From an uncultured Eubacteriales bacterium (lineage in GTDB: Bacteria; Bacillota; Clostridia; Christensenellales; CAG-138): DNA of 38,850 nucleotides. Below, in pieces: positions 33,043-38,335 of the stretch. Both the position numbers and the translations under genes were made by a program. Position 1 is the stretch's first letter, and the number at the start of each line of letters is the position of its first letter. Under the pieces are notes generated by a model. That model ran no database searches, was not told where the DNA came from, and worked only from the letters and a program-made list of their open reading frames with translations. The DNA is taken from NCBI GenBank assembly GCA_902802575.1, contig CADCMN010000045.1, positions 1 through 38,850 on the forward strand. Reading direction: 5' to 3'.

Positions 33043-33720
33043 ATGCGCGCATTGATCGTGGAGGACGACAAGGCTTTGGCCCGGACCTTGGGCGAGATGC
33101 TCAAGAGCGTCCATTTTGAAAGCGATATCTGTTACGACGGGGAGTCGGGCCTGGACAACGGCTTGTCCGACGCCTACGACCTCATCGTCCTCGATATCAT
33201 GCTGCCCAGGAAGGACGGCTTCTCCATCGCCAAGGAGCTGAGAAAAGAGAAGATCGACACGCCCATCCTCATGCTCACCGCCCGGACGGAGATCGACGAT
33301 CGGGTGAAGGGGCTGGACAGCGGCGCGGACTATTACCTGACCAAGCCCTTCGAGATGTCGGAGCTTTTGGCCTGCGTGCGGGCCCTGACCCGGCGGCAGG
33401 GGGAGGTGGTCATGGACGAGCTCAGCTTCGGCGGCTTGAAGCTGAACCTGTCCACCTGCGATTTGAGCTACGCCGACAAGAAGGTGCGCCTGGGCAAGAA
33501 GGAGTTCTCCATCATGCGCATCTTCATGGCCAACGGCGCGGCCGTGGTCAGCAAGGAGTCCCTGATAAACAAGGTGTGGGGCTTTGAAAGCGACGCGGAG
33601 GACAACAACGTGGAGGTCTACATCTCCTTCCTGCGCAAGAAGCTGGCCTTCTTGAAGGCGCCCGTGCAGATCGCCACCCTGCGCAAGTTCGGCTATCGAC
33701 TGGAGGCGTTGGAGAAATGA
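33043..33720 (+). CDS. OmpR-family response regulator
   Basis: 225 residues. Receiver with acidic pocket E7, D8, D9, phospho-acceptor D51 in IVLDIMLPRKDGFSIAKELR and switch lysine in DYYLTKPFEMSE. The winged-helix effector domain (about 125-222) has LGKKEFSIMRIFMANGAAVV and ends LRKFGYRLEAL. The ATG at 33043 follows GAGGGGGAAAG. The stop overlaps the kinase start (ATGA at 33717-33720). The domain sequence resembles regulators paired with simple two-membrane-segment kinases; the signal is unknown. Confidence 0.95.
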   Translation: MRALIVEDDKALARTLGEMLKSVHFESDICYDGESGLDNGLSDAYDLIVLDIMLPRKDGFSIAKELRKEKIDTPILMLTARTEIDDRVKGLDSGADYYLTKPFEMSELLACVRALTRRQGEVVMDELSFGGLKLNLSTCDLSYADKKVRLGKKEFSIMRIFMANGAAVVSKESLINKVWGFESDAEDNNVEVYISFLRKKLAFLKAPVQIATLRKFGYRLEALEK

Positions 33721-34916
33721 TCAAAAAGCTGAAACGGCGGTTTATCCTCACCAGCATGGTGGTTGTCACGCTGGTGCTGCTGCTGGTCCTGGGGGTCCTG
33801 TTCGTGGGCGCCCGGAAGGTGGTCTACTCCGACGCGGATCAGATGCTCAAGCGCTCGCTGATGATCTCCCTGGGGGAGAAGGGCGGCGGCGAGGGCCGCG
33901 GCGGACGGAACGAGCGGGCGGTGGTGCTCTCCATCGACCCGGAGACCGGCGAGATCGAAAAGAAGAGCAGCGGTACGCTCATCAACTTTTCGGATCAGGA
34001 GCAGCAGGAGCTGGCCCAGGAAGCCGCCCAGAGCAAGGCGCTCAAGCATCGGGGCGTGCGCACCTCCGTGGAAAAACACAACGGCAAGACCTATGTGGCG
34101 GTGGTGGACACCACGCTGGAGGATCGGCTGTTGACCGCCGCCATGAAGGCGCTGGCGCTCTTTGCCGTGGGAGTGTGGCTGGCGCTGCTGCTGCTGGTGT
34201 ATCTGCTGTCCGGCTGGGCCGTGCGGCCCATGGCCAAGGCCTGGGATATGCAGCGGCAGTTCGTGGCGGACGCCTCCCATGATCTGAAAACGCCCTTGAC
34301 CGTCATCCTGAGCAACAGCGAGCTGCTGAAGCAGCAGAACGAGGGGCGGGAGGCCCCGGAGGTAGACCGGATCGAGACCGCCGGCAAACGGATGAAGGAA
34401 CTGGTCCAAAAGATGCTGACCCTGGCCCGCATGGAGGACGATCCCAACCCCAACGCCTACGAGACCATGAACCTTTCCGATATGGTCATGGAGAGCGCCC
34501 TGGCCTTCGAGGCCACGGCCTTTGAGAAGGGATTGGTCATTGACGAAACCGTGGAAAGCGATCTGATGGTGAAGGGCAACCGGGCCCAGGTCCAGAGCGT
34601 CCTCGAGTGTTTGCTGGACAACGCCTGCAAATATGCCGCCCCCGGCAGCCGGGTGACCGTGTCGCTGGAGAAGGCGGGGAAGAAGGCGAGGCTCACCGTC
34701 CACAACACTGGCTCCTATATCCCCCCCGAGGACCTGGCTCATGTGTTTGAACGCTTCTACCGGGCGGACAAGAGCCGCACCGCTTCCGACAGCTCCGGGC
34801 TGGGCCTGGCCATCGTCCAGAGCGTGGTGGAGCGCATGAAGGGCGCCGTCACCGCCGAGAGCAGCCAGGAGAGCGGCACGGCCTTCACGGTGCTGCTCCC
34901 CCGGGAGAACGGCTGA
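33717..34916 (+). CDS. Sensor histidine kinase
   Basis: 399 residues. TM1 about 14-34, a short external loop of about 110 residues rich in Gly, Arg and Glu near its start, TM2 about 140-165 (LFAVGVWLALLLLVYLLSGW), then directly a HisKA domain with QFVADASHDLKTPLTVILSN (His near 190), an N box LLDNACKYAAPGSRV, and a G box SSGLGLAIVQSVVERMKGAV. Only a short linker lies between TM2 and HisKA, with no obvious HAMP. It is coupled to the response regulator by a 4-bp overlap and followed by a terminator, so the operon ends here. Confidence 0.94.
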   Translation: MIKKLKRRFILTSMVVVTLVLLLVLGVLFVGARKVVYSDADQMLKRSLMISLGEKGGGEGRGGRNERAVVLSIDPETGEIEKKSSGTLINFSDQEQQELAQEAAQSKALKHRGVRTSVEKHNGKTYVAVVDTTLEDRLLTAAMKALALFAVGVWLALLLLVYLLSGWAVRPMAKAWDMQRQFVADASHDLKTPLTVILSNSELLKQQNEGREAPEVDRIETAGKRMKELVQKMLTLARMEDDPNPNAYETMNLSDMVMESALAFEATAFEKGLVIDETVESDLMVKGNRAQVQSVLECLLDNACKYAAPGSRVTVSLEKAGKKARLTVHNTGSYIPPEDLAHVFERFYRADKSRTASDSSGLGLAIVQSVVERMKGAVTAESSQESGTAFTVLLPRENG

Positions 34917-35015: not shown

Positions 35016-36938
35016 TTAAGGCGTTTTTACGGGAACGTCACCCTCCGGCTCGATGAATTGAGCGGACAAATATCCCTTCCATTCAGTGCCGGCTACCAGC
35101 ACATAGTAGTACTCGTCCTCCTGATAAAAGATGTAGACCTTCTTTCCTTCGACGACCATTCCGAGGGACGGGCTGGTAGCGGAGGGGCCCTCTCGCAGGG
35201 ACAGAGTGGAGGCGGTGACGGTGCCGAGCACTGTGCCCTCCGGCTGGTCGTTGTCGGCGGAGGTATCTCCCAGGGCGGTGAGGAGCTTGATGAACTGCTT
35301 GGAGATGTAGCCGTATTTTTTCGTATCATTCATAAGCACGAAATAGAAGTCGCCGTCCTCGGCGTATACGGTGACCCTGGTGCCGCTCTTCAAACCGGTG
35401 GCAATGATGGTGGTGTTCGTGCTGGGCCCTTGACGCATGCGGACGCCGCTCTTGATGATCTTCCCTTCCGCGGCCCCGGCGATCATATCGGCCGTAGGCG
35501 CCGTGAGGGCGTTGGGGTCATCGGTAAGGGGGACGGAGGCGCCGGTGGTCGCTTGCACATCCGTGGGCGTGAGCCGCGTCATGGGCAGGCCCTTCATTTG
35601 GTAGAACTTTTCTGCGGCGGGATGGTAGGGCACGCCGTCGAAGGACGCGGCGAAGGCAAGATCCAGCTCGCTGCCCTTGGCATGGGCGGCGGTAACGTCA
35701 GGGATGTGGTCGAAGACACCGGAGAGGAAGTTGTACACGTCGGTATCGGACACGTCGTTGCGGGCGAGGACCACGGCCATGACCGCCACGGTGGTCACGT
35801 CCTCGGGGGTGTTGTACACGCTTCTCGGGATGACGCCCTTTGTATAGTAGGGACAGCGGTCCATGAGCTTGCGGATGTGCTCATCATCAAAATTCAGCAG
35901 GTAAAGCTGACGTTCGACAGCCAGACTGTACACCGAAGCGGTGGGGGCGCCGGCAACCACGAAGGCGGCGTCGATCCTGCCGCTGTTAAGATCCTCCGCA
36001 CTTTCCATGAAGTTTTGATAGGTGGGGTTGATGTCCTCGTCGGCGTCGATGCCGTAGGCGCCCAGCACGTCGATGGCGGTGAAGTACACGCCGGATCCAT
36101 AGACGCCGATGGCGACGCGCTTGCCCTTCAGATCGGCCACGGTCTTGGTGTTGGGGTCCAGGGTGACGATCTGGACATGCTCCCTGTACAGGGCCGCCAC
36201 GGCGGAGAAGGAGGTGTTTGCCAGATCGAAAGAGCGGGTGCCCGTATAGGCGTAGGCTGCCACATCGGACTGCACGATCCCCAGTTGGGCATCGTTTTGG
36301 ATCAGAGCCTCGATGTTGGATTTGGAGCCATAGGAGGTGACGGCCGTCACCCAAGTATCGGTCGTGCTGCTGACCTGATTTGCCAGCACGCTGCCGAAGC
36401 TATAGTAGGTGCCCATCTCGCCGCCGGTGGTCAGCGTGAGGCTCCCGCCCCGGTTGCCGAAAATGTTCAAGGAGAAATCGTCGTCAGGAGCGCCTTCCTT
36501 TGGCTGGGGCGTTTTCTCCGCAGCGGATGCGGAATCGTCCATAGGATCGCCTTCCTTCGGTTGGGACGTTTTCTCCGCAATGGACGCTTGTTCGTCCGCC
36601 TCGGCCTTCCGCTCCTTCAGCAGGGGGATCAGCACCACCGTGAGCACCACTGTCAGCGCCAGCAACAGGGCGCAGACGCCGATGAGGATGGGCACAAGAC
36701 GGTTTTTCTTCTTCCCGATCGGCTGTTGCCGGGCGGATATGCTCTGCCGTTCGGCCGTCGGCTTCCGGGGATAGTTCTTCCCTGAATCGGTCTGCTGGGT
36801 TTTCTGCTCGGCCTCAAACTTTTGGGGATAGTTTTTCCCGCTGTTGGAGCCGACTTTGGCGTCAGCCTCCGTGTCAAACCCACACTTCCCGCAGAATCTT
36901 CCCTTCAGTTGGCCGCCGCAGCGAGGACACTGTTTCAT
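35016..36938 (-). CDS. Zinc-ribbon, membrane-anchored TAXI-type binding protein with two SH3 domains
   Basis: 640 residues. Order: zinc ribbon CPRCGGQLKGRFCGKCG (C4, C7, C16, C19); a linker with two SGKNYP repeats; a membrane helix (about 81-105); an acidic linker with two near-repeats of AEKTxQPKEGxPxDD; a TAXI-type TRAP solute-binding domain (about 155-460) with TTGGEMGTYYSFGSVLANQV, YGSKSNIEALIQNDAQLGIV and GKRVAIGVYGSGVYFTAIDV; then two bacterial SH3 domains (about 490-555 with GVRMRQGPSTNTTI, and 565-632 with TLSLREGPSATSPS). TAXI proteins normally have a signal peptide and work with a TRAP permease; neither is present. AAGGAG precedes the ATG. The binding domain presumably faces out and the ribbon in. 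Function unknown. Confidence 0.88.
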   Translation of the reverse strand: MKQCPRCGGQLKGRFCGKCGFDTEADAKVGSNSGKNYPQKFEAEQKTQQTDSGKNYPRKPTAERQSISARQQPIGKKKNRLVPILIGVCALLLALTVVLTVVLIPLLKERKAEADEQASIAEKTSQPKEGDPMDDSASAAEKTPQPKEGAPDDDFSLNIFGNRGGSLTLTTGGEMGTYYSFGSVLANQVSSTTDTWVTAVTSYGSKSNIEALIQNDAQLGIVQSDVAAYAYTGTRSFDLANTSFSAVAALYREHVQIVTLDPNTKTVADLKGKRVAIGVYGSGVYFTAIDVLGAYGIDADEDINPTYQNFMESAEDLNSGRIDAAFVVAGAPTASVYSLAVERQLYLLNFDDEHIRKLMDRCPYYTKGVIPRSVYNTPEDVTTVAVMAVVLARNDVSDTDVYNFLSGVFDHIPDVTAAHAKGSELDLAFAASFDGVPYHPAAEKFYQMKGLPMTRLTPTDVQATTGASVPLTDDPNALTAPTADMIAGAAEGKIIKSGVRMRQGPSTNTTIIATGLKSGTRVTVYAEDGDFYFVLMNDTKKYGYISKQFIKLLTALGDTSADNDQPEGTVLGTVTASTLSLREGPSATSPSLGMVVEGKKVYIFYQEDEYYYVLVAGTEWKGYLSAQFIEPEGDVPVKTP

Positions 36939-37041
36939 ACGATCTCTCCTTGTGGTGTGATACTGTTAAAAAGCTTGTTCCGATCAAATTATTATTTCAA
37001 AAACATCCCTGCAGCGCAAGAACAGAGCGGCGCATGAATAA

Positions 37042-37078: not shown

Positions 37079-38335
37079 TTACGGCAGGTCTACGGCTTCC
37101 AGCCGCAAAGTCACTTCCGGCAGCTCCACTGTGGTGCCGGAGGTCCCGCCGAAGCTGGGCTGCTTGAACACGAACTTCAAGCGGACGTGGGCGTTGTCCT
37201 CGTCGTCGAAGGTCAGCTCATAGAGATGGCACTCGCCCAGGGAGAGATCGGCGGTGACGCCGGGGAAGGTCACCTCGTTGGTGTTCTCCGTGCTGATGGT
37301 CACCTTGGAGAGGGTGCTGGACTTGGACTTGACGTTGGTGGCGCATATCCTCAGATGGTGGATGGTCTTGCGATCCGCCGAAAGGATGAACCGGACGGTC
37401 ACCTCATCGGCGCCCTGGCAGGAGGCGGACCCCCAGAACACGATCTCCCCGGCCTTCAGGGCGGGCATCTTCTCTGTGTCGGGCAGGACCTTGCGGCCCG
37501 GGACCGGCGCCTCCACGGGCTGTTCCGTGGCGGCGGGCTTCGCCGGCTCGGCGGTGGGCGTATCCTCCTTGACGGCGGGCTTCTTGGTGCTTTCCACCAC
37601 GGGGGCGTCATCTTCGACCGCCCGATCGTCGGCCTTCTTCAGCCGGGGCACCAGCAGCAAAGCGACGGCCACCAGCAGCGCCAGGGCGATGGCGCAGATG
37701 ACGATGAGCAGGGCGATGAGGCCGCCGTTTTTCTTCTTCTTTTTGACTACGGGGCGCTGGGAAGGGCTCGCGGAATACGTGGGCCGGGAGGCGCTGTGGA
37801 CCGGCGCGGACACGGGCGCGGCGGCCGGCTCCGGCTCAAAATCTGGCAAGGAATCGGGATCGAACTCCGGTTCCGGCTCCGGCTCCGGTTCCGGCGCGGG
37901 CTCAGGCTCCGGCTCGGGCATAGGCTCCGGCTCGGGCGCAGGCTCCGGCTCGGATTCCGGCTCCGGCTCGGGCGCAGGCTCAGGCTCGGGCGCGGGCTCC
38001 GGCTCCGGCGCGGGCTCCGGCTCGGGCATAGGTTCCGGCTCGGGTTCCTGCTCCAGCTCGGGCGCGGACTCCGGCTCCGGACCAAGATCCAGTTCCACAG
38101 GGGCCACATAGATGGACTTCGGCGCAGGCGCGGGCGTCGGGATTTCTTCAACGGAGGCAGGCTTTGAAACGGGCTTCGGCGCAGGCGCGGGCTCCGGCAC
38201 GGGCGTCGGCTTTGCAGCGACGGGCTGGGGCTTGGGCGCGGACGGCGCGGCGGTGAGGGTGAGGGCGGGTTTGCCGCAATAGACGCAGAATCTGGCGTCC
38301 TTGCGCATGGGTTTGCCGCAGTTGTAACAGAACAT
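37079..38335 (-). CDS. Zinc-ribbon membrane protein with Pro/Glu repeat
   Basis: 418 residues from the ATG at 38335 (GGAG eight bases upstream). Zinc ribbon [20 protein letters not shown] (C3, C6, C17, C20), a Pro/Ala/Lys linker (25-80), a run of EP/PEPA dipeptides (about 85-160), a KKKKK patch, a membrane helix (about 194-219, [20 protein letters not shown]), a second low-complexity linker, and a C-terminal beta-rich domain (about 290-418) with two cysteines and no family I recognise. A single membrane helix after a basic patch suggests the ribbon stays inside and the last domain is outside. It lies upstream of the TAXI-domain gene on the same strand with the same ribbon-helix plan. Confidence 0.82.

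What the first reader, a model, noticed from the sequence alone, without database searches (positions are those of the whole stretch)
35016..36938. Unusual fusion: cytoplasmic zinc ribbon, membrane helix, TAXI binding domain and two SH3 domains
TAXI-type domains are normally secreted or lipidated partners of TRAP permeases. Here the domain hangs from a type II membrane protein with an N-terminal zinc ribbon and ends in two bacterial SH3 domains, and no TRAP permease gene is adjacent. This suggests a ligand-sensing or wall-associated receptor rather than a transporter part: the ligand binds outside and the state could pass through one helix to the zinc ribbon inside. Motifs are read directly; the role is inference.
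Basis: partly seen in the sequence, partly recalled or inferred. Interest (0 to 1): 0.75.

Follow-up and report, generated by a model that had tools for sequence, protein, structure and literature searches.

The report
Membrane-tethered solute-binding protein, recently assembled
One bacterial genome carries a protein in which a nutrient-binding domain, normally a separate partner of a transporter, has been joined to a membrane anchor with a probable zinc-binding tip inside the cell and two likely wall-binding domains outside; its binding pocket looks intact, it has no transporter gene beside it, and what it does is still a guess.

Summary
Window 35016-36938 (minus strand) encodes 640 aa: CxxC-x8-CxxC motif, basic stretch, one TM helix, ~55-residue acidic linker, full TAXI domain, two SH3_3 domains. 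The fusion was found in 1 of 103 family genomes searched and in no other listed TAXI row of the order and class searches; the only other long frame there is a TAXI-GltS fusion. It is a mosaic. The TAXI part groups with TRAP-linked proteins of two other genera, not with the genus's own. The SH3 tail is 75% identical to a TM-SH3-SH3 protein of the same genome. The TM region resembles that of the neighbouring ribbon protein. It sits in a young islet between a histidine kinase gene and glnS. Residues Y45, S75, Q93 and E125 of the VcGluP glutamate pocket are kept. All 21 stand-alone relatives checked have a permease gene close by; the window has none.

Best reading: a membrane-tethered, wall-reaching binding protein for a glutamate-like solute, acting as capture protein or receptor, not a dedicated TRAP subunit. 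Relay through the helix is unsupported, since the linker is long and looks flexible. Serving the resident TRAP permease in trans remains open. Structure prediction was uninformative.

The parts
35016..36938 (-). whole gene, 640 aa, ribbon-TM-linker-TAXI-SH3-SH3
36882..36929 (-). zinc ribbon motif CxxC-x8-CxxC, residues 4-19
   Evidence: sequence; weak DZR match E 0.013, below cut-off
36615..36698 (-). single TM helix with KKKNR before it, about residues 81-108
   Evidence: hydropathy peak 84-102; model helix 81-121, block pLDDT 54-75
36450..36614 (-). acidic low-complexity linker, residues 109-163, with two near-repeats (AEKTSQPKEGDP / AEKTPQPKEGAP)
   Evidence: sequence
35580..36449 (-). TAXI solute-binding domain, residues 164-453, pocket residues Y178, S205, Q223, E253 kept
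35019..35561 (-). linker plus SH3 pair, residues 460-640, homologous to the TM-SH3-SH3 protein on contig C3 of the same genome
35286..35450 (-). first SH3_3 domain, residues 497-551
35052..35243 (-). second SH3_3 domain, approximate residues 566-629
   Evidence: two SH3_3 stretches counted; an SH3-bearing NCBIfam model, far below its cut-off, spans 497-629; edges estimated
36946..36951 (-). AAGGAG Shine-Dalgarno-like site
37079..38335 (-). neighbour P0002: ribbon, Pro/Glu-rich linker, KKKKK-TM, unclassified domain; TM region homologous to that of the fusion
33717..34916 (+). histidine kinase, left edge of the islet, found in 11 of 12 genus genomes

Best explanation
A recently assembled membrane protein. 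Shown by sequence: a TAXI solute-binding domain with a preserved glutamate-type pocket is joined to a ribbon-TM N-terminus through a long linker and ends in an SH3 pair homologous to a conserved membrane SH3 protein of the genus. Inferred: the TAXI and SH3 parts are outside; the SH3 pair holds the protein in or against the wall; the TAXI domain closes on an acidic amino acid (glutamate-like) near the membrane; and the protein works as a capture protein or receptor by occupancy or clustering with a partner, not as the dedicated subunit of a TRAP transporter. The ribbon inside is more likely a docking or anchoring tip than a relay moved through the helix.
For: Domain calls are strong. No permease homologue in the window, against 21 of 21 stand-alone TAXI relatives with one in the fetched stretch. 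The genome shows 2 DctM hits, each near one of its 2 other TAXI genes, and no gltS match. VcGluP residues Y45, S75, Q93 and E125 are kept, while the C68 TAXI of the same genome has T, M and N at S75, Q93 and E125, so the match is not a mere family feature (residues from passages of PMC11574862). dN/dS about 0.26 for TAXI against its nearest relative and 0.25 for the SH3 part against its paralogue, so neither part looks decayed. Faster change than the nearest TRAP-linked sister: 45 against 24 unique changes, chi-square 6.4, with G016 as outgroup. The fusion changes 4 of 30 positions otherwise invariant in 20 TRAP-linked relatives; 7 of those tested the same way change 0 to 3 of 30-33. Ribbon-one-TM proteins with other outer domains occur in the genome, one also ending in two SH3 domains.
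Against: No function was tested. The genome is 76.8% complete, so a third permease or a gltS could be missing. 88 of 105 positions invariant in 13 close TRAP-linked relatives are kept, which also fits continued transport service. With C8 as outgroup the rate difference is weaker (35 against 22, chi-square 3.0), and against 11 same-genus proteins the fusion changes 93 of 207 invariant positions where the TRAP-linked G034 changes 83 of 207 and G016 80 of 206: a small excess. A fusion seen in one genome may be young and of little consequence.
Confidence: 0.45

Rival explanations
1. An alternative, TM-tethered binding protein that feeds the resident C8-type TAXI-TRAP permease in trans; the anchor replaces the usual lipid anchor.
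For: The permeases of the two nearest TAXI relatives are 51-53% identical to the C8 permease, so the docking surface may be shared; 88 of 105 invariant positions are kept; pocket kept; a long linker would allow docking. SBPs of Gram-positive bacteria are normally tethered to the membrane (PMC9602780, passage).
Against: The C8 permease has its own TAXI next to it; the fusion evolves somewhat faster and loses positions otherwise fixed in TRAP-linked members; the SH3 tail and ribbon have no role in this model.
Confidence: 0.3
2. Ligand-controlled receptor in the first reader's sense: TAXI closure is passed through the single helix to the cytoplasmic ribbon, which regulates a partner.
For: Topology; pocket kept; no permease adjacent; SBP-type domains do serve as sensor domains in other proteins (PMC9602780, passages); another ribbon protein of the genome has sigma-factor regions before its TM (TM).
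Against: About 55 low-complexity residues between helix and TAXI; ribbon-TM anchors also carry other ectodomains; the adjacent kinase and regulator genes are on the other strand and are also found in relatives without the islet.
Confidence: 0.12
3. A young chimera with no settled function, or with the TAXI fold used only as a spacer or adhesin-like scaffold.
For: Seen in one genome only; islet absent in the 4 relatives where kinase and glnS are neighbours.
Against: Open over 640 codons, low dN/dS on both parts, pocket kept.
Confidence: 0.1
4. Assembly or binning artefact joining three genes.
For: Fragmented assembly of 140 contigs, 3.36% contamination; no reads available.
Against: Both junctions are in frame; the parts are not copies of the genome's other genes (DNA 80% identical to the C3 SH3 gene, 65-79% in pieces to the C8 TAXI gene); G005 has a ribbon protein in the same spot and orientation; G+C 0.57-0.68 along the gene, window 0.61.
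Confidence: 0.03

Closest known systems
TAXI solute-binding proteins of TRAP transporters (VcGluP, TtGluBP; PF16868, TIGR02122)
   Same: Whole domain; the paper's two key pocket residues Y45 and Q93 kept
   Different: TM anchor behind an 80-residue N-terminal part with ribbon, SH3 tail, no permease gene in the window
BP0403-type elongated TAXI and TAXI-GltS fusions (PMC12344293; abstract, passages and one section seen)
   Same: TAXI domain with extra parts and no TRAP permease; shows that TAXI domains do leave TRAP systems
   Different: BP0403 is a lipoprotein whose extra domain resembles PilO, next to gltS; here TM anchor, ribbon and SH3, and no gltS match in the genome
Ribbon-TM-ectodomain proteins such as S. 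aureus TcaA (PMC10328498, one passage: predicted single membrane span, zinc finger inside, most of the protein outside)
   Same: Same topology and ribbon position; the genome has several such proteins
   Different: Ectodomain unrelated; no TcaA family among the Pfam or NCBIfam hits
TM-SH3-SH3 protein of the same genus (C3 gene, 286 aa)
   Same: Homologue of the SH3 half, 75% identity
   Different: No ribbon and no TAXI family in its Pfam hits

Membership tests
TAXI solute-binding domain | scores over curated PF16868 / TIGR02122 cut-offs over the full domain | tested here: met
   205 vs 27 bits and 237 vs 84 bits
TAXI solute-binding domain | predicted TAXI fold | tested here: inconclusive
   AlphaFold2 with a two-row alignment, mean pLDDT 35.8; no fold search was run on it
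TAXI solute-binding domain | glutamate pocket of VcGluP | tested here: met
   7 of 13 residues named in the paper's passage kept, among them Y45, S75, Q93, E125; of the six mutated in the paper Y200 and M201 differ, as they do in the two TRAP-linked sisters
TRAP transporter subunit | secreted or lipidated protein of 300-350 aa | tested here: not met
   640 aa, first hydrophobic stretch at about 81-108; no signal-peptide program was run
TRAP transporter subunit | permease gene adjacent | tested here: not met
   no permease homologue in the window, 21 of 21 relatives have one; genome's two DctM hits on other contigs
TAXI-GltS system | gltS adjacent or fused | tested here: not met
   0 PF03616 matches in the genome; genome 76.8% complete
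ribbon-TM-ectodomain proteins (TcaA-like topology) | N-terminal ribbon, one TM, large ectodomain | tested here: met
   motif, hydropathy; ribbon below Pfam cut-off; zinc binding and sidedness not tested
TcaA | TcaA ectodomain homology | tested here: not met
   no such family among Pfam or NCBIfam hits up to E 1
bacterial SH3 wall-binding proteins | SH3_3 domains | tested here: met
   two stretches, 60 bits vs cut-off 27
bacterial SH3 wall-binding proteins | binding to cell wall | not testable with these tools
   none

The most novel reading that the evidence does not exclude
A TRAP binding domain recruited into a single-pass surface receptor: a class of ribbon-TM proteins whose outer domains differ, one of them carrying sigma-factor regions before its TM, has captured an SBP, giving a wall-embedded amino-acid sensor independent of any transporter.
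Probability: 0.25. Interest if true: 0.65.

Novelty: new variant of a known kind. Interest (0 to 1): 0.42.

Why it matters
It is a recent case of a transporter's binding domain moved onto a membrane anchor, with relatives of the TAXI and SH3 parts identifiable in other genera and in the same genome. It adds to recent evidence (TAXI-GltS) that TAXI domains are not tied to TRAP permeases, and it points to a class of ribbon-TM surface proteins with differing outer domains whose role is open.

Tried and rejected
AlphaFold2 on the full protein with one distant relative gave mean pLDDT 35.8; only ribbon and TM had moderate confidence, so I ran no fold search and used sequence homology instead. Two scans of viral contigs with TAXI queries found no relative. 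The genome-contig scan gave one distant TAXI, which has a permease homologue nearby. tblastn against plasmids gave 358 records, none covering 80% of the query; the 8 rows listed match the TAXI part only. A linked two-component function was considered because kinase and regulator genes lie next to the islet; rejected as the main idea, since they are on the other strand and occur in relatives without the islet. A gltS partnership was considered and not supported. In one search the row G003:C58 shows an 820-aa open frame; read as an ORF it is a 363-aa TAXI (the family search gives 382). Literature searches were made; no listed title concerned a ribbon-TAXI-SH3 protein, but the lists were cut and most subscription papers are not held. 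Seen of papers: abstract, passages and one section of PMC12344293; passages of PMC11574862, PMC10328498 and PMC9602780; search listings of the rest.

Full report
What is there. The minus-strand ORF 35016-36938 encodes 640 aa. From the N-terminus: CPRCGGQLKGRFCGKCG, a hydrophilic stretch, KKKNR, one TM helix (peak 84-102), an acidic linker with two near-repeats, a complete TAXI domain (170-450, Pfam 205 bits, NCBIfam 237 bits) and two SH3_3 domains. Solved TAXI proteins match across the domain (best E 2e-32). The ribbon is a clean tetracysteine motif but below Pfam's cut-off (DZR E 0.013). A Shine-Dalgarno-like AAGGAG precedes the ATG.

Is it unique? In 61 relatives, 12 of them in the genus, only the window's genome gave a full-length match among the rows listed, best first (list cut). 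A search of 103 genomes of the family gave 52 rows, 39 over the cut-off; apart from this one (649-aa frame) the longest open frame over the cut-off is 427. In 396 genomes of the order, 42 rows: the only other long frame is G208 with 798. It reads as a 773-aa protein with TAXI (PF16868, 82-365) and Glt_symporter (PF03616, 382-742) domains, like the TAXI-GltS fusions of PMC12344293. In 391 genomes of the class every other listed row is at most 441. In 398 of the phylum the listed rows reach at most 496, and the list was cut. Order, class and phylum sets are samples, and genomes overlap between searches. Several genus genomes are only 68-77% complete, so absence there is weak.

Where the parts come from. 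The tree of 22 TAXI domains (the fusion and 21 others; the fragment G005:C58 was left out) puts the fusion with G034:C32 (support 98/92) and then G016:C14 (100/99), apart from the 11 C8-type proteins of the genus. The tool flags the fusion as a long branch, so its exact place is less sure. Both sisters have a DctM permease gene beside them. A homologue of the C8 permease was found in the fetched stretch around all 21 stand-alone TAXI genes used, and none in the window. Identity is 60% and 55% to the sisters, 48% to the genome's own C8 protein. Thus the domain came either from outside the genus or from a copy lost elsewhere in it. The SH3 half is 75% identical to the C3 gene of the same genome (DNA 80% over 512 bases). 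C3-like matches occur in 12 of 12 genus genomes; I read 8, and all 8 have a TM by hydropathy and align with the SH3 pair, 268-316 aa; Pfam was run on one. The TM region matches the neighbour P0002 (34% over 114 aa, E 7e-13 in a two-sequence comparison with filters off; DNA 70% over 128 bases).

The place. The kinase was found in 11 of 12 genus genomes; I read the locus in 10 besides the window. In 4 (G001, G006, G008, G009) glnS follows the kinase gene after 113-365 bases. Two of these gaps hold no ORF of 40 aa and two hold only short ORFs of up to 90 aa. In G005, the nearest relative by kinase identity (84%; G003 has 83%), two minus-strand genes lie between: a 412-aa protein with DUF6273 and a 1108-aa ribbon protein with three copies of the P0002 domain. 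In 4 (G003, G004, G010, G011) no glnS was found in the fetched stretch and other genes follow the kinase; in G007 the contig ends. So the islet looks young and holds ribbon proteins in two species.

Ribbon-TM proteins as a class. A Zn_Ribbon_1 scan of the own genome gave 36 matches at E up to 1. I looked at 30 loci; several are the same protein, and 2 gave no ribbon ORF. Those with an N-terminal ribbon, one TM by hydropathy and a long part behind it are L109, L110, L111, L112 (P0002), L116, L118, L124 and L125; several of these ORFs were cut by the fetched stretch. One further protein read (L093 4414-6276) has a ribbon-like motif, TM, unclassified middle and two SH3 domains. L110 has two ribbons and sigma-70 regions 2 and 4 ahead of its TM. 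S. aureus TcaA is predicted to have the same topology (PMC10328498, one passage).

Function. In the own genome the 2 DctM hits lie near the 2 other TAXI genes, and there is no gltS match, with 76.8% completeness as a caveat. Pocket: after adding the VcGluP chain to the alignment, all 13 residues named in the paper's passage fall on the right letters. The fusion keeps Y45, Y46, S75, Q93, E125, G156 and G203, but not S40, V44, H123, D157, Y200 and M201; at these six the sisters G034 and G016 also differ from VcGluP. The paper found Y45 and Q93 to be the key determinants. dN/dS is about 0.26 and 0.25 (NG86; dS above 1 in the TAXI pair, so rough). Relative-rate counts are 45 against 24 with G016 as outgroup (chi-square 6.4) but 35 against 22 (3.0) with C8 as outgroup, so the acceleration is moderate. 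Against the 11 same-genus proteins the fusion changes 93 of 207 invariant positions, the TRAP-linked G034 83 of 207 and G016 80 of 206: a small excess. The data fit a protein under selection for ligand binding, with somewhat relaxed other constraints; they do not prove release from a permease.

Mechanism. I favour a tethered, wall-reaching binding protein for a glutamate-like solute, used as capture protein or receptor. The linker argues against a rigid relay through the helix. Feeding the C8 permease in trans is the main rival. Expression, zinc binding, sidedness, wall binding and ligand are all untested. Promoter-like and terminator-like matches lie around the gene but are consensus matches only.

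Noticed in passing
37079-38335, and L091 5069-8395: P0002 carries a ~140-aa unclassified outer domain (query residues 281-417) that in the 12 genus genomes was matched only in G000 and G005, where it occurs three times in one protein and again on contig C25.
   Followed up: partly
L134 938-3259 (G208): 773-aa protein with TAXI and Glt_symporter domains, in another family of the same order: a further case of the published TAXI-GltS fusion.
   Followed up: yes
L110 1498 onward, L093 8-3220: Protein with two N-terminal zinc ribbons, sigma-70 regions 2 and 4, one TM and a long outer part: looks like a membrane-tethered sigma factor.
   Followed up: partly
L002 1261-2376 (G000 contig C68): The C68 TAXI, near its own permease, has T, M and N at the S75, Q93 and E125 positions of VcGluP, so it probably binds something other than glutamate.
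   Followed up: partly
L093 4414-6276: Another protein of the same genome with ribbon-like motif and TM ends in two SH3 domains with an unclassified middle part.
   Followed up: partly
L136 (G040 contig C20): TAXI match in two overlapping profile pieces within one 424-aa frame, perhaps an internal duplication.
   Followed up: no
37500-38200: Long Pro/Glu repeat linker of P0002 between ribbon and TM, with long antisense ORFs opposite.
   Followed up: no
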